From Aeromicrobium sp. (lineage in GTDB: Bacteria > Actinomycetota > Actinomycetes > Propionibacteriales > Nocardioidaceae): a stretch of 37,213 bases of DNA. Under the pieces are notes generated by a model. It ran no database searches. It was not told the origin of the DNA and worked only from the letters and a program-made list of their open reading frames with translations. Where the stretch lies: the NCBI GenBank assembly GCA_025965115.1, contig JAOPXO010000180.1:1-37213 (forward strand), in the 5' to 3' direction. The position numbers and the translations under genes are program-made. Shown in pieces: positions 27,381 to 34,928 of this stretch; the first letter of the stretch is position 1; each line of letters starts with the position of its first letter.

Positions 27381-27974
27381 TCATGCCGTGAGTGCGTGGA
27401 AGACGTCGACGAGCTCGTCGATGACTTGATCGACGCTGAGGTCGAGGACACCCTCGTGCCAGGCAAGCCCGACCTGGGTCAACGCACCGGCAAACGCGTA
27501 CGCGCGAAGCCGTAGAGCCGCATCGTCGGATCCTTCGGGGGCCGGGCTGAACTCGAACCAGAGCTCCACCGCACGCGTGGCGAAGCCGTCGCCGTAGGGA
27601 GCTAACGCACCGGTACGACCCTCGACAGCGAGGAGCCGAGCCACGCGCGGGTCGCTCAGCGCTCCGCGGAGGTAGACGGTCAGGGCAGGCCGGGGGTCCT
27701 GCCCACCGCCGGCGATGATCCCCGGAATCACCTGCTCGACCAGCCGATCAGTGACCTGTTGGAACACCGCAGCGGCGAGCTCGTCGATCGACGCGAAGTT
27801 CTCATAGAAGTAGCGCTTGGTGAGTTTCGCCTCGGCGCAGATGTCGACGATCCCGACTGCCGCTACGCCGCGGGTGCCGAAGAGTTCAAGACCGGCGTCG
27901 ATCAGTTTCTGGCGCCGCTCATCGCGCCGCTCGGTGGCGGTCACTCCGCCGTACACACGTGCGGTCTCAGGCAC
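27381..27974 (-). CDS. TetR family regulator of the DoxX-MpaB-CrtC-like operon
   Basis: The protein has 197 aa and starts at GTG, with AGAGGTG eight bases upstream. The helix-turn-helix spans about residues 20-66 ([19 protein letters not shown], then the recognition segment [16 protein letters not shown]). The gene diverges from the DoxX operon across 88 bases that hold a good promoter and an 18-base palindrome. It probably represses that operon in response to an unknown, likely hydrophobic ligand. RNase HI lies immediately downstream. Confidence 0.88.
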
Positions 27975-27993: not shown

Positions 27994-28023
27994 TTGACAC
28001 CCGATCGTATCAGATCGTAGAGT
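27994..28023 (+). promoter_or_regulatory. Promoter TTGACA-N18-TAGAGT of the DoxX operon
   Basis: TTGACA at 27994-27999 is a perfect -35 and TAGAGT at 28018-28023 fits TANNNT. The transcript would start near 28030, just at the operator palindrome. Two GATCGTA direct repeats lie between the boxes and read TACGAT on the other strand, where they could serve the TetR gene. Confidence 0.65.
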
Positions 28024-28031
28024 CATCAATG

Positions 28032-28049
28032 TGATCCTCTAAAGGATCA
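28032..28049. promoter_or_regulatory. TetR operator candidate TGATCCT-N4-AGGATCA
   Basis: Perfect seven-base arms surround CTAA, placed at the predicted transcription start and 13 bases before the DoxX ATG. A TetR dimer here would block transcription of the operon. Confidence 0.65.
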
Positions 28050-28062
28050 GATTGGTGGACCA

Positions 28063-28422
28063 ATGAGTACGTCGACAATCACGACCATCGTCACCGTCGC
28101 CCTCGCCGCGCTGTTCCTGCTTTCAGGCGCCAGCAAAGTGCTCCGTCATCCCGCGTCCCTCGTCTCACGCGACGAGCTGAAGGTGCCCGCGATCCTCTGG
28201 AGCCTGATCGGCGCCGCCGAGATCGCCGGTGCCGCCGGCGTGCTGATCGGCCTCGGCGTGACGCCACTCGGAATTGCCGCCGCTGCCGGACTACTGGTCC
28301 TGAGCATTGGCGCGGTGGGAGCTCACGGCCGAGCACACGATCCGATCGCCCACACAGCTCCGGCCGTGCTCGGCTTCCTCCTGGCCGCAGGGACGCTCGC
28401 GCTGTTCGTGACGGGCGGATGA
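28063..28422 (+). CDS. DoxX-like membrane protein
   Basis: The protein has 119 aa with four hydrophobic helices and the DoxX-type start ALAALFLLSGASKVLRHP, followed by VPAILWSLIGAAEIAGAAGVLIG. DoxX relatives often accompany redox enzymes in membranes and may handle quinones or electrons, although their role is generally unproven. GGTGG precedes the ATG. The stop overlaps the MpaB-like gene by ATGA, so the two are translationally coupled. Confidence 0.85.
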   Translation: MSTSTITTIVTVALAALFLLSGASKVLRHPASLVSRDELKVPAILWSLIGAAEIAGAAGVLIGLGVTPLGIAAAAGLLVLSIGAVGAHGRAHDPIAHTAPAVLGFLLAAGTLALFVTGG

Positions 28423-29690
28423 CCACGATGACTGCAGACGCCGGATCGATGACCGAACCGATTCCCACCGAGTTCCTCGGATACTGGAAGCGGCTCGACG
28501 AGCCAGGCATCCGGCGAGCCCGCCGACTCTGCCGAGCCATCCTGCGTTTCGATCCCATACCCGACGAGGCGCAGGTGCTGGACTTCGCTCGCGGCTACTA
28601 CGACGCCGATCCAGTCGCGGAGGCATTCGTTGACGAGGTGTACGGCGGTCGCGGCAGCGCGGAGGGTCGTCGGATGCTCGACCTCGCCATCGCACACGGT
28701 GTCGAGTCCATCCCCGATGCACCGGAGTCGATGCGGAAGCTCTTCGACGAGTTCGAACGTCCGCCGGCGTGGCTCGATCCCGCCAAGATCGACCAAGGAG
28801 CTGCGCTGTTCAGGCGCTTCGGTCCGTCGGTGTTCAGCTTTGCCGGCGTTGAGACACTGCTCGGCTACACCGAGAGCTCGATCGTCAAACCCCTGTCCAT
28901 GACCGGTGGCTATGCCGGCGACAGCGCGTTGAACCGGTTCATGGAGACCGCACGGTTCTGGATCGACGTCTCTGAGCCGGGCGGCCTCGACACCGGTGGC
29001 CCAGGTCGAGCGACTGCGATGAGGGTACGTGTGATGCACGTGTTCCTCCGCCGGCACATCGTTGAGCATCCTGACTGGGAGATCGACTCTTGGGGTGTGC
29101 CGATCAGCCAGTCCGATGCGCTGATCACCCTGATGTCCTCAAGTCTCACGCCCGGCCTGGCCATGCACCTGATGGGCTATCGCACCACACGCCGCGAGAT
29201 CGAGACGTTGATGCACTACTGGCGTTACATCGGACACCTGCTCGGCGTCCAACCGCGCTGGTACCCCGAGACGTTCGTCGAAGGGCTTCAGCTCAGCACG
29301 GTGTTCCTGCTCAAGTGCGCCAAGACAGCCGGGGCCGACGGTGTTGAGCTGGTGGAGTCGTACCCTCGCGCATTCACCCCGAAGACGGGTGGGCCCTGGC
29401 GCAGGCGACTGCGCGATGAGATCAACTATCGGGCCCAGGTCGGCTACACCCGGTTCTTCCTGCCCGGCCGGTTCTACCGCAAGTACGACATGCCCAACCC
29501 CTGGCCCTGGGCCCTCCACCCGCTGCTCCGGGCGCCCGGCATCTTCATCGTCGACACGCTGCGTCGGCACGTTCCGCCGATCGCACGACAGGTCGACCGC
29601 TATGCACGGTGGCGCCGCAACACCTGGTGGCTCAACGAAATGGGCGAGAAGGAGTCGAAGTTTGCCCCGGCCGAGGCGCTGCGCCGTTGA
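28419..29690 (+). CDS. MpaB/Lcp-type oxygenase (DUF2236)
   Basis: The protein has 423 aa with the DUF2236 pattern: FSFAGVETLLGYTESSIVKPL, RFMETARFWIDVSEPGGL, VRVMHVFLRRHI (the His here corresponds to the proximal haem ligand region of latex-clearing protein), and WGVPISQSDALITLMSSSL. The family includes Lcp, a b-type haem dioxygenase that cleaves polyisoprene double bonds, and fungal MpaB, which cleaves a farnesyl chain. An oxidative role on an isoprenoid or other hydrophobic chain is therefore reasonable but inferred. It is the second gene of the operon, coupled to DoxX, and the CrtC-like gene follows after 46 bases. Confidence 0.86.
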   Translation: MTTMTADAGSMTEPIPTEFLGYWKRLDEPGIRRARRLCRAILRFDPIPDEAQVLDFARGYYDADPVAEAFVDEVYGGRGSAEGRRMLDLAIAHGVESIPDAPESMRKLFDEFERPPAWLDPAKIDQGAALFRRFGPSVFSFAGVETLLGYTESSIVKPLSMTGGYAGDSALNRFMETARFWIDVSEPGGLDTGGPGRATAMRVRVMHVFLRRHIVEHPDWEIDSWGVPISQSDALITLMSSSLTPGLAMHLMGYRTTRREIETLMHYWRYIGHLLGVQPRWYPETFVEGLQLSTVFLLKCAKTAGADGVELVESYPRAFTPKTGGPWRRRLRDEINYRAQVGYTRFFLPGRFYRKYDMPNPWPWALHPLLRAPGIFIVDTLRRHVPPIARQVDRYARWRRNTWWLNEMGEKESKFAPAEALRR

Positions 29691-29736
29691 GCCACTTCCG
29701 CGCACGACATCTCATACCGAAGGAAGGCTGACAATC

Positions 29737-30837
29737 ATGTTCACGAAGGAAACCTGTCGGATGGCCTCAGTGCCGGCCGACTACGAACGGTTCGGGATCG
29801 CCCAGGGCAGTATCGCTCCCTGGGAGGATGGGTTCCGCACCGACCCTGGCGGTCCTGGCACGTTCGAATGGTGGTATTTCGACGCCGTCCTCGAGGACGG
29901 CTCCACGGTGGTGATCAACTTCATGGTCAAGGACATCCGTGGGGGCGGCGGGGTCAACCAACCGGTCCGGCCCGTCGTCACGTTCGAGCTGGACCGCCCC
30001 GACGGCACACATGTCGAGCGCACCACACCGGTGCTCGACGACTTCTCATTCTCGGCAGACCGCTGCGATGTACGAGTCGGCGCGAACACCTTCGTCGGTG
30101 ACCTGCACGCGTACGCGATCCATGTCGAGATCGAGGACGTGGTCGCGGAGGTCACCCTCACGGGACGTGTGCCTTCCTGGCGACCCGACACCGGTCACAT
30201 GCTGTTCGGAAGCGATCGACCTCACCTGTTCGCGTGGCTGCCCTCCATGCCTCAGGGGGCTGTCGAGGCAACTCTCATGATCGATGGGCAGACACGAACC
30301 CTGGCCGGAACCGGCTATCACGATCACAACTGGGGCAACGCCGCGATGCAGCAGCTGATCAATCACTGGTACTGGGCACGTGGCGAGGCCGGCAGATACT
30401 GCGTGATCGCGTCGAACATCACCGCCGAACGGAAGTACGGCGATACCGAGATCCCGATCTTCATGCTCGCGAAGGACGGCAAGATCGTGGCCGATGACAG
30501 CTCATTCGTGCGGTTCGAGAAGACCGATGAGCATCCTGACCCTTTCACCGGGAAGCCGGTCGCCGACATCACGGTCTACGACTACGACGCCACGGCCGAC
30601 GGCGGTGAGCACTACCGAGTCACCTTCGCGCGTGGTTACACGATCGTCAACAACCGCATGATCGACTCCGTCAAGGGCCCCAAGCATGTCCTCGCAAAGC
30701 TCGTCGGATTCGACGGTTCCTATATGCGATTCACCGGCCAGGTCACCGTCGAGCACCTCACCGACGGCGCCGACCCAGCGCCCGTGACCGCGCCGGCCCT
30801 GTGGGAGCTCATGTACTTCGGCAAGACCAGGACTTAG
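29737..30837 (+). CDS. CrtC/AttH lipocalin-like protein (putative hydratase or cyclase)
   Basis: The ATG at 29737 follows AAGGAAGG by nine bases and gives 366 aa; the longer track ORF overlaps the oxygenase gene. FEWWYFDAVLEDGSTVV near residue 40 and GTGYHDHNWGN near residue 190 are the marks of the CrtC/AttH double-lipocalin fold. CrtC hydrates carotenoid C=C bonds, and other members act as cyclases or Diels-Alderase-like enzymes. There is no signal peptide. As third gene of the operon it probably acts on the same substrate as the DUF2236 oxygenase. The actual reaction is unknown. Its stop overlaps the convergent gene by TTAG. Confidence 0.82.
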   Translation: MFTKETCRMASVPADYERFGIAQGSIAPWEDGFRTDPGGPGTFEWWYFDAVLEDGSTVVINFMVKDIRGGGGVNQPVRPVVTFELDRPDGTHVERTTPVLDDFSFSADRCDVRVGANTFVGDLHAYAIHVEIEDVVAEVTLTGRVPSWRPDTGHMLFGSDRPHLFAWLPSMPQGAVEATLMIDGQTRTLAGTGYHDHNWGNAAMQQLINHWYWARGEAGRYCVIASNITAERKYGDTEIPIFMLAKDGKIVADDSSFVRFEKTDEHPDPFTGKPVADITVYDYDATADGGEHYRVTFARGYTIVNNRMIDSVKGPKHVLAKLVGFDGSYMRFTGQVTVEHLTDGADPAPVTAPALWELMYFGKTRT

Positions 30838-31886
30838 TAGTTGCGGCCGGTGATGACGGGTAGGTCCTTGAGCGTCACCACGCCCGGTGCGGCCGCGACG
30901 ACGTACGGGACGGCGTTCGTCGCGGGCATCGCGGTGTAGATCATCCCGGGACCCATGTAGCCGTCCTCGTCCCAGTCACTCGGCGGGAGACAGTTGATCA
31001 CGGTGCGGAAGTTCGGGCGCCCGAACACCTGGATGACATGCCCGTGCGCGATCTTCTTGGGTGGCGTGACGATGCCCATGATCCAGTTGAACCCCACCGA
31101 CACGACGTTCCTGTCGCCGACCCAGGCGCGATGGAAGCCGTACACGCCACCGATGCTGCCCTTTGGGATCTTCATGAAGCCGAGGTCGGCATCTTCGTCG
31201 GCCGGGGTGAACAACACATCGAAGCTGAGCCGATCCACCGTGAGGCCCATCGCCTCGGTCATCATCGCGGCGGACTCCGCGAACACCTCGCTCTCAGTGC
31301 GTACGTAGTCCTCGAGGCCAGGAGTCGTCAGCTCGCGACCGAAGCCCATGTGGCTCATCGTCTCGTTCGACTCGTACGTCGAGCAGTCCACCGACTCGGT
31401 GATCCGGATCTCGTCGACCCGCTCGCAGGCGCCGGACAGGACCATGCCGACCATGTTGGTGATCCCCGGATGGGCGCCTGAGCCGAAGATCGTCGACTTC
31501 CCGACCTCGCAGGCCTTGGCGATACGCGCCTTGTCGGCATCGGACAGCTTGCCGCCGGTGATCCAGGCAGCGGTCGCGACGATGTTGATGCCGGCCGTCA
31601 GCAGGCGCTCGAGCTCGTCGACGTCCTGCCACAGCGGGTTGTAGCAACAAGCGTCCGGGGCAAGAGCGATGAGCTCGTCGATGTCGTTGGTGGCGTTGAT
31701 GCCGGTCGGTTCGGGCCAGTTGCACAAGTCGGCCGCGTCCTTGCCGACCTTGTCGGCACCGTGCGCGTACACACCGACCAGCTCGAGGTCGGGTCGAGCG
31801 AGGATCGCGTGGAGTGAGCGGCTGCCGATGTTGCCGGTCGTCCACTGGATGACTCGCAGCGGACGGTCGAACGAAGGGGTCGTCAT
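30834..31886 (-). CDS. DapB-like NAD(P)-dependent dehydrogenase
   Basis: The ATG at 31886 gives 350 aa; the longer track ORF extends into the upstream gap. The Rossmann start VIQWTTGNIGSRSLHAIL and the DapB-like segments DIDELIALAPDACCYNPLW, TAAWITGG and FGSGAHPGITNM assign it to the dihydrodipicolinate reductase-like group. That group includes 2,4-diaminopentanoate dehydrogenase and many actinobacterial proteins of unknown substrate. It is not DapB itself, which is shorter. It converges on the CrtC-like gene, so it is not in that operon although it may be functionally linked. It diverges from the first GH16 gene over 212 bases. Confidence 0.82.
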   Translation of the reverse strand: MTTPSFDRPLRVIQWTTGNIGSRSLHAILARPDLELVGVYAHGADKVGKDAADLCNWPEPTGINATNDIDELIALAPDACCYNPLWQDVDELERLLTAGINIVATAAWITGGKLSDADKARIAKACEVGKSTIFGSGAHPGITNMVGMVLSGACERVDEIRITESVDCSTYESNETMSHMGFGRELTTPGLEDYVRTESEVFAESAAMMTEAMGLTVDRLSFDVLFTPADEDADLGFMKIPKGSIGGVYGFHRAWVGDRNVVSVGFNWIMGIVTPPKKIAHGHVIQVFGRPNFRTVINCLPPSDWDEDGYMGPGMIYTAMPATNAVPYVVAAAPGVVTLKDLPVITGRNY

Positions 31887-32098
31887 GCGCCCTAGTAGAT
31901 CAGCCACCGACACGGCAGCCGCTCGAATCTCCGAAGACGCCACCTGTCGGTCTAGCTGATACGGCCCGATGGGGCTACGCGATCTAGTCCGCATGAGCCA
32001 TACACGCAGAATGCCGCCGAGTGACATCCTGTCTGTAGGGAGCGCCCCGCCGACACAGCACGTCGATCGGTGGGGTCGAAGTAGCAAGAGGGAGACTC

Positions 32099-33151
32099 AT
32101 GTTTCGAGCGCGCGCGGTTATTGCTGTCTGCACAGCCGGAATCTCGGTTGGTGCGGCGATCATTGTCGGGGCTGGAGCTGCAACGGCCAAGCCGGTGCAG
32201 AAGACCGAGAGTTTGGCGTCCGGGTTCAGCTGGCCAACTCCGCGACCAACGCCAACCCCGACGCCAACTCCGAGACCAACTCCGACGCCGACCCCAAAAC
32301 CAAGTCCAACTCCAACACCGACTCCGACGCCGACTCCAACACCGACTCCAACACCGACTCCGACCCCGACCCCAACACCACCTCCGGGTCCGTCATGTGG
32401 GGGCGACAGCCCGGACAAGCCCGGTGGTGGGCAGTACACCTGCACGTTCACCGATGACTTCGATGGCTCCGCCCTCGACTCGTCGAAGTGGACGATCGCT
32501 ACCACGGCCCAGACCAACATGAGCAACGCCAACAACGACTGCTATGTCGACAGCCCTGACAACGTCTCGGTCTCGGGGGGCTATCTGCACTTGTCGTCAC
32601 GGGTCGAATCGGCCCCATTCGTGTGCCATCGAACCTACGGCGACTTCACCACGACCAAGACTGCTGCGAATGTCGTGAGCTATGGGAAGTTCACCCAGAC
32701 ATATGGACGGTTCGAGTTCCGAGCGAAGTTCCCCACGGCGTCCTTGGGGTATGACTCGGCGCTGTGGATGAGTCCGCAGGTCCTGACGTACGGGGCATGG
32801 CCGAATTCCGGGGAGATTGACGTGGCGGAATGGTTCGGCAACGCCTATTCCGACCACGTCGTTGCCTCGGCGCACTACCTGGGAGAGACCAGCAATATCG
32901 GCAACTGTGTCGTGCCGGGCGCTGCCACAGGCTTCCACAACTACGCGGTGGACTGGACAGCGACGACGATGTACTACTACTTCGACGACCAGCTCTGCTT
33001 CCAACACTCGTGGAATCCGGCAGCGCCGTTGCTCGCTCCCAAGCCGTTTGACCAGGCGTTCTACATGACCATGACCCAGACAGGCGTGTGGAACGCGCCG
33101 GTCGGGGTGAGTGCCACCATGGACCTCGACTGGGTTCGCGCCTGGAAGTAG
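32099..33151 (+). CDS. Secreted GH16 glycoside hydrolase with Pro-Thr linker (copy 1)
   Basis: The ATG follows GAGGGAG and yields 350 aa: signal peptide ([22 protein letters not shown]), a Pro-Thr linker at about 46-97, and a GH16 domain opening [22 protein letters not shown]. The catalytic motif is [10 protein letters not shown] (ExDxxE), with nucleophile and acid/base Glu. Six cysteines are conserved with the two paralogues downstream and probably form three disulfides. GH16 enzymes cut beta-1,3/1,4-glucans and related galactans; the polymer here is not predictable. The linker would hold the catalytic domain away from the cell or another module. The leader before the start is shared with copy 3. 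Confidence 0.92.
32234..32389 (+). repeat. Six-base tandem repeat encoding the Pro-Thr linker
   Basis: A run of about 26 CCNACN units encodes (PT)n with a few Arg, Lys and Ser interruptions. The unit keeps the frame when it slips, so linker length could vary between strains. Confidence 0.85.
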
Positions 33152-34070: not shown

Positions 34071-34928
34071 ATGCGAATCCGAGCCGCCGCCACACTCGTT
34101 GCCCTGATGGCGTTGGCCATCTCGGCCTGCGGCGGCGGTTCGGGCGGTGAGCACCGACTGACGTGTGGCGGCGAGCCCCCCGCCAAGCCGGGCGGCGGCT
34201 CGTACAGCTGCACATTCAGCGACAACTTCACTGGCTCGACCTTGGACTCGTCGAAGTGGATGGTGCAGACCACGGCCCGTAGCGGCTACGCGACAGGCAG
34301 CGACTGCTACGTCAACAGTCGCAACAACATCTCGGTGGCTGGCGGCTATCTGCACCTGACCTCGCGGGTCGAGCCTGCGCCGTTCATCTGCCACAGTCCA
34401 CTAGGGCACTTCACGACCAGCCAGACCGCCGGCAGCGTGTTGACGTTTGACAAGTTTGCCCAGACGTACGGGCGATTCGAGTTCCGCGCGAAATTCCCAT
34501 CGACGGTGGGTCCCGGAGTCGACTCGGCACTGTGGATGTATCCGGTCAAGCCGGCCTACGGGGCGTGGCCCAACTCCGGTGAAATCGATGTCGCGGAGAG
34601 GTTCGGCACCCCGACGGCCGACCACATCCTCCCGTCCGTGCACTACGCAGGTGAGGACTCGGCTCTCAGCACCGGCCACGGGTGCGTGGTCCCCACTGCA
34701 GACTCGGCATTCCACACGTACGCGGTCGACTGGACCACGACGACGATGTACTTCCGTTATGACGGCCACCTGTGCTTCCAACATTTCTGGACCCCCAACG
34801 CGCCATTGGTGCGACCGCAGCCCTTTGACCAGGCGTTCGACCTGGTGATGACCCAGACCGGCCAGAGGGGCGCGCCGGTCGGGACCACGATCACGATGGA
34901 CGTCGATTGGGTCCGCGCCTGGAGATGA
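34071..34928 (+). CDS. GH16 glycoside hydrolase lipoprotein (copy 2)
   Basis: The protein has 285 aa. The lipobox LAISAC at about residues 15-20 is followed by GGGSGG, so it should be lipid-anchored. The domain opens CGGEPPAKPGGGSYSCTFSDNF, the catalytic motif is GEIDVAERFG, and the six cysteines of copy 1 are kept. The Trp of EWFG is Arg here. It lacks the Pro-Thr linker. Its TGA overlaps the ATG of the hydrolase gene downstream (ATGA), an unexpected coupling of a glycanase with a dehalogenase-like enzyme. Confidence 0.9.
   Translation: MRIRAAATLVALMALAISACGGGSGGEHRLTCGGEPPAKPGGGSYSCTFSDNFTGSTLDSSKWMVQTTARSGYATGSDCYVNSRNNISVAGGYLHLTSRVEPAPFICHSPLGHFTTSQTAGSVLTFDKFAQTYGRFEFRAKFPSTVGPGVDSALWMYPVKPAYGAWPNSGEIDVAERFGTPTADHILPSVHYAGEDSALSTGHGCVVPTADSAFHTYAVDWTTTTMYFRYDGHLCFQHFWTPNAPLVRPQPFDQAFDLVMTQTGQRGAPVGTTITMDVDWVRAWR

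What the first reader, a model, noticed from the sequence alone, without database searches (positions are those of the whole stretch)
28063..30837. DoxX / DUF2236 oxygenase / CrtC-like operon under a TetR: possible isoprenoid-modifying pathway
DUF2236 includes Lcp and MpaB, which cleave isoprenoid C=C bonds, while CrtC hydrates isoprenoid C=C bonds. Here the two are co-transcribed with a membrane DoxX protein and a dedicated TetR. No carotenoid synthesis gene is nearby, so the substrate may be imported or a membrane terpenoid, quinone tail or sterol-like lipid. I know of no described system with this set.
Basis: partly seen in the sequence, partly recalled or inferred. Interest (0 to 1): 0.62.

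Follow-up and report, generated by a model that had tools for sequence, protein, structure and literature searches.

The report
Heme oxygenase and prenyl-hydratase-like operon
A soil actinobacterium carries a small regulated gene set that pairs an enzyme built like a rubber-cutting heme oxygenase with one built like an enzyme that adds or removes water at isoprenoid double bonds; the pair recurs in many actinobacteria beside ring-cleavage genes, which points to an undescribed route for breaking down isoprenoid-tailed lipids.

Summary
Behind a divergent TetR lie DoxX_2 (28063-28422), an MpaB/Lcp-family oxygenase (28419-29690) and a CrtC-like two-domain lipocalin (29737-30837), apparently one transcript. 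The oxygenase keeps Lcp's proximal heme His (H207) plus R173 and T177, invariant in 41 homologues; its model matches only Lcp in the PDB. The lipocalin keeps CrtC's catalytic Tyr, Asp and Trp residues but not His239, falls below CrtC family cut-offs, and folds like lipocalin Diels-Alderases, kievitone hydratase and 25-phosphosteroid lyase.

The oxygenase-lipocalin pair is conserved: 37 of 83 loci, 34 directly adjacent. DoxX is lineage-restricted (3 loci). In a sister clade (Rhodococcus, Gordonia, Dietzia, Nocardioides, Solirubrobacteraceae) the pair often sits with homogentisate dioxygenase, a phenylacetaldehyde-dehydrogenase-like enzyme, multicopper oxidase, CoA-transferase and Mce importers. 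Near relatives of the window gene pair the oxygenase with YceI, a polyisoprenoid-binding family.

Best reading: an inducible operon that oxidatively cleaves an isoprenoid-type lipid, the lipocalin adding or removing water at the double bond the oxygenase cuts. The substrate may be a prenylated (hydro)quinone; unproven for the window. The genome shows no phytoene/squalene synthase, so home-made carotenoids are unlikely. New variant of a known kind.

The parts
27381..27974 (-). TetR-family regulator, divergent from the operon
   Evidence: PF00440 39.5 bits; same cluster of TetR (c46) stands divergent upstream in L041 and L042
27994..28023 (+). Promoter-like site TTGACA-18-TAGAGT; the TTGACACCC...CGTATCAGATCGTA block is nearly identical in L041 and L042
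   Evidence: one site found, 0.7 expected by shuffling, so conservation carries the weight
28032..28049 (.). Candidate TetR operator, palindrome TGATCCTCTAAAGGATCA between promoter and first start codon
   Evidence: the perfect palindrome is not kept in L041/L042, so candidate only
28063..28422 (+). DoxX_2 small membrane protein, 119 aa, three strong hydrophobic stretches (9-27, 60-78, 98-116)
   Evidence: PF13564 68.9 bits; hydropathy
28419..29690 (+). MpaB/Lcp-family heme oxygenase (inferred), 423 aa; H207 proximal ligand, R173, T177, E176 in place of the Lcp distal Lys
   Evidence: PF09995 57.5 bits; Lcp alignment; 41-sequence alignment; AF2 pLDDT 89.6 and Foldseek to 5o1l/5o1m
29737..30837 (+). 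CrtC-like two-domain lipocalin, inferred isoprenoid (de)hydratase, lyase or cyclase; numbering from Met 29761: W38, W159, Y186, D188, W203, W205 match CrtC catalytic residues
   Evidence: sub-threshold PF07143/PF24137; 25-sequence alignment; alignment with a real CrtC; AF2 pLDDT 83 and Foldseek

Best explanation
A TetR-controlled operon for oxidative cleavage of an isoprenoid-type lipid. The regulator would release the divergent promoter when the lipid or a derivative is present (inferred). The CrtC-like lipocalin would use its conserved Asp188 as general acid/base, with Trp residues steadying a tertiary carbocation, to interconvert a trisubstituted C=C and its tertiary alcohol or ether, that is, hydrate, dehydrate or open a ring (inferred from residues and fold). 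The MpaB/Lcp-type oxygenase would bind b-type heme through His207 and cut the C=C with O2 into carbonyl products (inferred from residues, fold and the family's known reactions). DoxX would be a membrane partner, perhaps for electron or quinone handling (weak). The most likely substrate class is a lipid with a prenyl-type tail or side chain taken from outside or from membranes, such as a prenylated (hydro)quinone or chromanol; a sterol-type side chain is the next best. Shown here: gene order, conservation, key residues, predicted folds, partner genes. Not shown: any activity, heme binding, substrate or regulation.
For: Oxygenase: PF09995 above cut-off; Lcp R164, T168 and H198 (PMC5522427) correspond to R173, T177 and H207, invariant in 41 sequences; Foldseek finds only Lcp among significant hits. 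Members of the family cleave C=C in prenyl chains or polydienes (PMC12724181). Lipocalin: Y266, D268, W283, W285, W241 and W110 of R. gelatinosus CrtC (PMC4717167, PMC12402844) correspond to Y186, D188, W203, W205, W159 and W38, invariant in 25 sequences; the central ones were checked against a photosynthesis-cluster CrtC. Its fold matches kievitone hydratase, which hydrates a prenyl C=C, and 25-phosphosteroid lyase, which makes an isoprenoid-type C=C by elimination. Linkage: the lipocalin gene is directly downstream of the oxygenase gene, same strand, in 34 of 83 loci, plus 3 within 4.2 kb; on the oxygenase tree the label needs 11 changes against about 27 in shuffles. Substrate class: near relatives L043 and L069 have a YceI gene immediately upstream of the oxygenase and L045 has one downstream; YceI structures hold octaprenyl lipids or ubiquinone-8 (PMC9113575). 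In the sister clade the pair often sits with hmgA (622 bits, cut-off 511), an ALDH closest to phenylacetaldehyde dehydrogenase StyD, a multicopper oxidase, CoA-transferase, HMG-CoA-lyase-like protein and Mce/YrbE genes. The window genome has 31 MlaD (Mce) domains and no phytoene/squalene synthase.
Against: The ring-cleavage, ALDH and Mce genes are not beside the window operon, and the genome (88% complete) shows only one weak HGD-like gene, so the sister clade's substrate cannot simply be carried over; the two clades' lipocalins are only 24-29% identical. Most oxygenases in the window's own clade (28 of 33) lack a nearby lipocalin, so it is not essential to that oxygenase. The nearest lipocalin outside the clade, on a Streptomyces plasmid at 66% identity, has no oxygenase beside it. 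CrtC His239 is Phe. The Lcp distal Lys is an invariant Glu here, and Lcp Glu148 has no obvious counterpart.
Confidence: 0.5

Rival explanations
1. Sterol or triterpenoid side-chain route: the lipocalin forms a delta-24-type alkene by elimination, as 25-phosphosteroid lyase does, and the oxygenase cuts it to a shortened aldehyde plus an acetone-like ketone. The lipid enters by one of the genome's Mce systems.
For: Foldseek match of the lipocalin to 25-phosphosteroid lyase and its known reaction; 31 MlaD domains in the genome; MpaB cleaves a terminal prenyl C=C with loss of acetone (PMC12724181).
Against: 25-PSL is a weaker match than the Diels-Alderases and NE1406; no kinase or steroid-ring gene is beside the operon; the sister clade's partners (hmgA, phenylacetaldehyde-DH-like) point to an aromatic head group.
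Confidence: 0.15
2. Membrane protection or detoxification: DoxX and the oxygenase remove oxidised or foreign polyunsaturated lipids, and the lipocalin is a carrier or scavenger rather than an enzyme.
For: YceI-type lipocalins paired with membrane redox proteins act against lipid peroxyl radicals (PMC9113575); DoxX is a membrane protein; one regulator controls a short operon.
Against: CrtC catalytic Tyr, Asp and Trp residues are invariant in 25 sequences, more than a carrier needs; the sister clade's clusters look catabolic.
Confidence: 0.15
3. Specialised-metabolite tailoring: as in fungal clusters where MpaB and lipocalin Diels-Alderases act in biosynthesis, the operon modifies a home-made or partner-made compound.
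For: Best fold matches of the lipocalin are Diels-Alderases CghA, Fsa2 and Phm7; sub-threshold DA_N and AsqO_C matches.
Against: No synthase, terpene cyclase or PKS/NRPS was seen among the window genes examined; no phytoene/squalene synthase in the genome; neighbours vary between relatives.
Confidence: 0.1
4. The grouping is loose: a TetR-oxygenase unit is the functional core, and the lipocalin and DoxX are passengers gained in one lineage.
For: 28 of 33 clade members lack the lipocalin; at least 21 of 30 testable have a divergent TetR; DoxX beside the oxygenase only in 3 loci.
Against: The same two families pair again in the other clade in 32 of 50 loci, mostly in tight same-strand order; in the window clade oxygenase and lipocalin diverge in step (82 and 75% to L041, 67 and 54% to L044).
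Confidence: 0.1

Closest known systems
Latex clearing protein Lcp (LcpK30, PDB 5O1L/5O1M)
   Same: PF09995 catalytic domain, proximal His, active-site Arg and Thr, overall fold
   Different: About 20% identity; distal Lys167 replaced by invariant Glu176; Glu148 not obviously kept; in an operon with a lipocalin
MpaB (mycophenolic acid) and bacterial MpaB-family oxygenases such as Nro1
   Same: Same Pfam family; C=C-cleaving reaction class reported (PMC12724181)
   Different: Nro1 has Lys71 and Arg72 where this has Glu176 and Thr177, and is a shorter form (PMC12724181 gives 323 aa against 423 aa here); a short form is what L041 carries as an extra gene
Carotenoid 1,2-hydratase CrtC
   Same: Catalytic Tyr-x-Asp and Trp-x-Trp with identical spacing, plus other Trp
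   Different: His239 is Phe; below PF07143 and NF045922 cut-offs; no carotenoid genes found
Kievitone hydratase (7A0Q/7A0T) and 25-phosphosteroid lyase (9G4C)
   Same: Two-domain lipocalin fold acting at isoprenoid-type C=C
   Different: 13% and 10-12% identity; different partners and context
Lipocalin Diels-Alderases CghA, Fsa2, Phm7
   Same: Closest PDB folds
   Different: 12-16% identity; PF24137 below cut-off; no polyketide cluster seen

Membership tests
MpaB/Lcp oxygenase family (PF09995) | Pfam gathering score | tested here: met
   57.5 bits against 23
MpaB/Lcp oxygenase family (PF09995) | Proximal heme His (Lcp H198) and active-site Arg164 and Thr168 | tested here: met
   H207, R173, T177, invariant in 41 sequences
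MpaB/Lcp oxygenase family (PF09995) | Lcp-like fold | tested here: met
   AF2 pLDDT 89.6; Foldseek 5o1l E 2.4e-7, TM 0.60/0.67
MpaB/Lcp oxygenase family (PF09995) | b-type heme and O2-dependent alkene cleavage | not testable with these tools
   needs protein
Rubber oxygenase Lcp (strict) | Distal Lys167 and catalytic Glu148 | tested here: not met
   Lys replaced by Glu176; no Glu at the aligned place of 148; Lys167 is only 59% conserved among Lcps (PMC5522427)
Carotenoid 1,2-hydratase CrtC | Family score (PF07143; NF045922 equivalog) | tested here: not met
   20.2 against 22.5; 26.2 against 400
Carotenoid 1,2-hydratase CrtC | Catalytic Tyr266, Asp268, Trp283, Trp285, Trp241, Trp110 | tested here: met
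   Y186, D188, W203, W205, W159, W38; W110 = W38 is placed by spacing and conservation only
Carotenoid 1,2-hydratase CrtC | Catalytic His239 | tested here: not met
   F157 in the window; the aligned clade A and B homologues shown have Phe as well
Carotenoid 1,2-hydratase CrtC | Carotenoid biosynthesis context | tested here: not met
   no PF00494 in own genome, 88% complete
Lipocalin Diels-Alderase (PF24137/PF22903) | Pfam gathering score | tested here: not met
   26.3 against 27; 14.5 against 27
DoxX-like (PF13564) | Pfam gathering score; small membrane protein | tested here: met
   68.9 bits against 26.3; hydropathy
TetR regulator | TetR_N domain; divergent promoter with operator | tested here: inconclusive
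   domain met; operator only a candidate palindrome

The most novel reading that the evidence does not exclude
Actinobacteria hold an undescribed pathway that strips the isoprenoid tail from prenylated (hydro)quinones or chromanols such as tocopherols, tocotrienols or plastoquinone. The lipid enters by Mce; a multicopper oxidase and the CrtC-like lipocalin open the chromanol or make the ring-proximal C=C; the MpaB-type oxygenase cuts it to an arylacetaldehyde; a phenylacetaldehyde-dehydrogenase-like enzyme gives a homogentisate; homogentisate dioxygenase opens the ring. The window operon would be a short version that makes only the cut.
Probability: 0.2. Interest if true: 0.8.

Novelty: new variant of a known kind. 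Interest (0 to 1): 0.55.

Why it matters
Bacterial turnover of isoprenoid-tailed lipids beyond sterols and rubber is little mapped. A conserved pairing of an alkene-cutting heme oxygenase with a prenyl-hydratase-like enzyme would supply two useful biocatalysts (ozonolysis-like cleavage and cofactor-free alkene hydration or elimination) and a testable route, with named genes in cultured Rhodococcus, Gordonia and Nocardioides, for how soil bacteria might degrade vitamin E or quinone lipids.

Tried and rejected
(1) Operon extending to 30834-32087: rejected; it is convergent, a 2,4-diaminopentanoate-dehydrogenase-like protein, and no relative of it turned up in the other oxygenase loci. (2) Three-gene system widespread: rejected; iterative DoxX search found it beside the oxygenase only in the window, L041 and L042, plus a distant DoxX after the lipocalin in L040. 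(3) An early by-eye idea that the window lipocalin lacks the CrtC Tyr-x-Asp was dropped after aligning a real CrtC: the motif is Y186-x-D188, upstream of where I first looked. (4) Carotenoid substrate made by the cell: no PF00494 gene. (5) Literature searches for a tocopherol or prenylquinone catabolic gene cluster in bacteria found none in this library; weak evidence of absence. (6) The perfect palindrome as operator: not kept in relatives, left as candidate. (8) My crude gene caller on loci missed genes and was replaced by six-frame profile searches.
Full report
WHAT IS THERE. The window is contig C273 of a 3.03 Mb, 88%-complete genome; its relatives are Nocardioidaceae. A TetR gene (27381-27974, -) faces three genes on the + strand: DoxX_2 (28063-28422), an MpaB/Lcp-family gene (28419-29690; ATGA overlap) and a CrtC-like lipocalin (29737-30837). 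The start at 29737 is preferred because AAGGAAGG precedes it and the extra N-terminal residues are matched in L041 and L044. A TTGACA-18-TAGAGT promoter-like site at 27994-28023 lies in a block nearly identical in L041 and L042; a perfect 7-bp-arm palindrome follows at 28032-28049 but is not conserved. The next gene (30834-32087, -) is convergent.

THE OXYGENASE. PF09995 scores 57.5 bits against a cut-off of 23. The profile aligns with Lcp. Lcp Arg164, Thr168 and the proximal ligand His198 (PMC5522427) correspond to R173, T177 and H207, invariant in 41 sequences; the distal Lys167 is an invariant Glu176. The AlphaFold model (pLDDT 89.6) matches only Lcp structures with significance (E 2.4e-7, TM 0.60/0.67). 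The family's described reactions are oxidative C=C cleavage in prenyl chains and polydienes (PMC12724181). The genome holds six PF09995 genes.

THE LIPOCALIN. It is below the PF07143, NF045922 and PF24137 cut-offs. Its model (pLDDT 83) matches CghA, Fsa2 and Phm7 Diels-Alderases, NE1406, kievitone hydratase and 25-phosphosteroid lyase. CrtC of R. gelatinosus needs Y266, D268, H239 and W241 (PMC4717167) and W110, W283 and W285 (PMC12402844). Aligned with the CrtC of Roseobacter litoralis, taken from its photosynthesis plasmid, the window protein has Y186-x-D188, W203-x-W205 and W159 in place, with the same 15 and 17 residue spacing from Asp to the two Trp, but Phe157 for the His. W38 is the likely W110. 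These residues are invariant in 25 sequences. Protonation chemistry at a trisubstituted alkene, in either direction, is therefore the natural inference; hydration itself is not shown.

CONSERVATION OF THE SET. A GTDB scan with the oxygenase alignment gave 80 loci; with the window and four loci from related whole genomes, and without two repeat records, 83 were compared. The lipocalin lies directly downstream on the same strand in 34 and within 4.2 kb in 3 more. Several loci without it are cut by contig ends. By my rough estimate, one or two such genes in a 5 Mb genome would fall within 5 kb by chance well under 1% of the time. The tree has two well-supported clades. Clade A (33 rows, 5 with lipocalin) holds the window, L041/L042 (82% identical), L044/L046, Solirubrobacterales, Mycobacterium and Nocardia. 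Clade B (50 rows, 32 with lipocalin) holds Rhodococcus, Gordonia, Williamsia, Dietzia, Nocardioides, Amycolatopsis and Solirubrobacteraceae. In clade A at least 21 of 30 testable loci have a divergent TetR, from several TetR subfamilies. DoxX appears beside the oxygenase only in the window, L041 and L042, plus a distant DoxX after the lipocalin in L040. L041 and L042 carry a further short MpaB-type gene (196.6 bits in L041) at the head of the operon. In whole-genome samples both parts are rare: the lipocalin in 6 of 395 class genomes at E 1e-20, the oxygenase in 5 of 397 phylum genomes at E 1e-90.

WHAT THE PARTNERS SAY. In clade B many of the pairs share clusters with homogentisate 1,2-dioxygenase (TIGR01015, 622 bits against 511), an aldehyde dehydrogenase whose best NCBIfam model is phenylacetaldehyde dehydrogenase StyD (649 bits, cut-off 800, so a lead rather than an assignment), a multicopper oxidase (closest model o-aminophenol oxidase), an unassigned conserved protein with a GFSGGG motif typical of alpha/beta hydrolases, a class III CoA-transferase, an HMG-CoA-lyase-like protein, MlaE permease and Mce proteins. 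In Nocardioides L038 the gene next to the pair is a different, divergent HGD-type protein, and many clade B genomes hold such a divergent HGD elsewhere besides the cluster copy. An alkene cut next to a hydroquinone ring would give an arylacetaldehyde; oxidation gives a homogentisate; HGD opens it. That is a coherent, untested route for prenylated (hydro)quinones or chromanols. In clade A, the window's sister lineage in Solirubrobacterales has a YceI gene immediately upstream of the oxygenase (L043, L069) and Mycobacterium L045 has one downstream; YceI proteins carry octaprenyl lipids or ubiquinone-8 (PMC9113575). Two independent partner types therefore point to isoprenoid lipids. The window genome has 31 MlaD domains, no phytoene/squalene synthase and one weak HGD-like gene.

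HOW IT MOST LIKELY WORKS. TetR senses a lipid or derivative (inferred). The lipocalin sets up or removes the C=C by acid/base chemistry at Asp188 (inferred). The oxygenase, heme-bound through His207, cuts the C=C with O2 (inferred). DoxX serves at the membrane (weak). Confidence 0.5 in this general form; about 0.2 for the full prenylquinone route.

LIMITS. No activity, heme content or substrate was tested. Transfer from clade B is limited by 24-29% lipocalin identity. A Streptomyces plasmid protein 66% identical to the window lipocalin stands without the oxygenase, so the lipocalin can act in other settings. Literature coverage is open-access only; no description of this set was found in the searches made.

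Noticed in passing
L041:6737-7660 and L042:6737-7663: The closest relatives' operon starts with an extra short MpaB-type gene (PF09995, 196.6 bits in L041) that the window operon lacks; two different MpaB-type oxygenases share one operon there.
   Followed up: partly
L091, L098, L099, L104-L106, L108, L110: In Williamsia-like loci the oxygenase gene sits between the glycolytic gap-pgk-tpi-ppc genes and the pgl-opcA-zwf-tal-tkt pentose phosphate genes, an odd fixed place for a lipid-type oxygenase.
   Followed up: no
L113 (titled Bifidobacterium breve MAG) and L108 (titled Kitasatospora): Neighbourhoods look like Solirubrobacteraceae and Williamsia respectively, so these records are probably mis-binned or mislabelled.
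   Followed up: no
L122:7914-9020 (Streptomyces plasmid NZ_CP107787): A lipocalin 66% identical to the window's stands beside a TetR gene without any oxygenase of this type nearby.
   Followed up: partly
G000:C95 (L002, L127): Another MpaB-type gene of the window genome lies a few kb from a run of Mce genes and has a TetR 30% identical to the window's beside it.
   Followed up: partly
window 32099-33151 and 34071-34928: Two secreted-looking family 16 glycoside hydrolases; the first has a long Pro-Thr repeat linker.
   Followed up: no
L072, L073, L074, L078, L081, L082, L089, L094-L097, L102, L109, L113, L117: A multicopper oxidase near the phenoxazinone-synthase (PhsA) type travels with the oxygenase-lipocalin pair in the other clade, in L117 as two copies.
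   Followed up: partly
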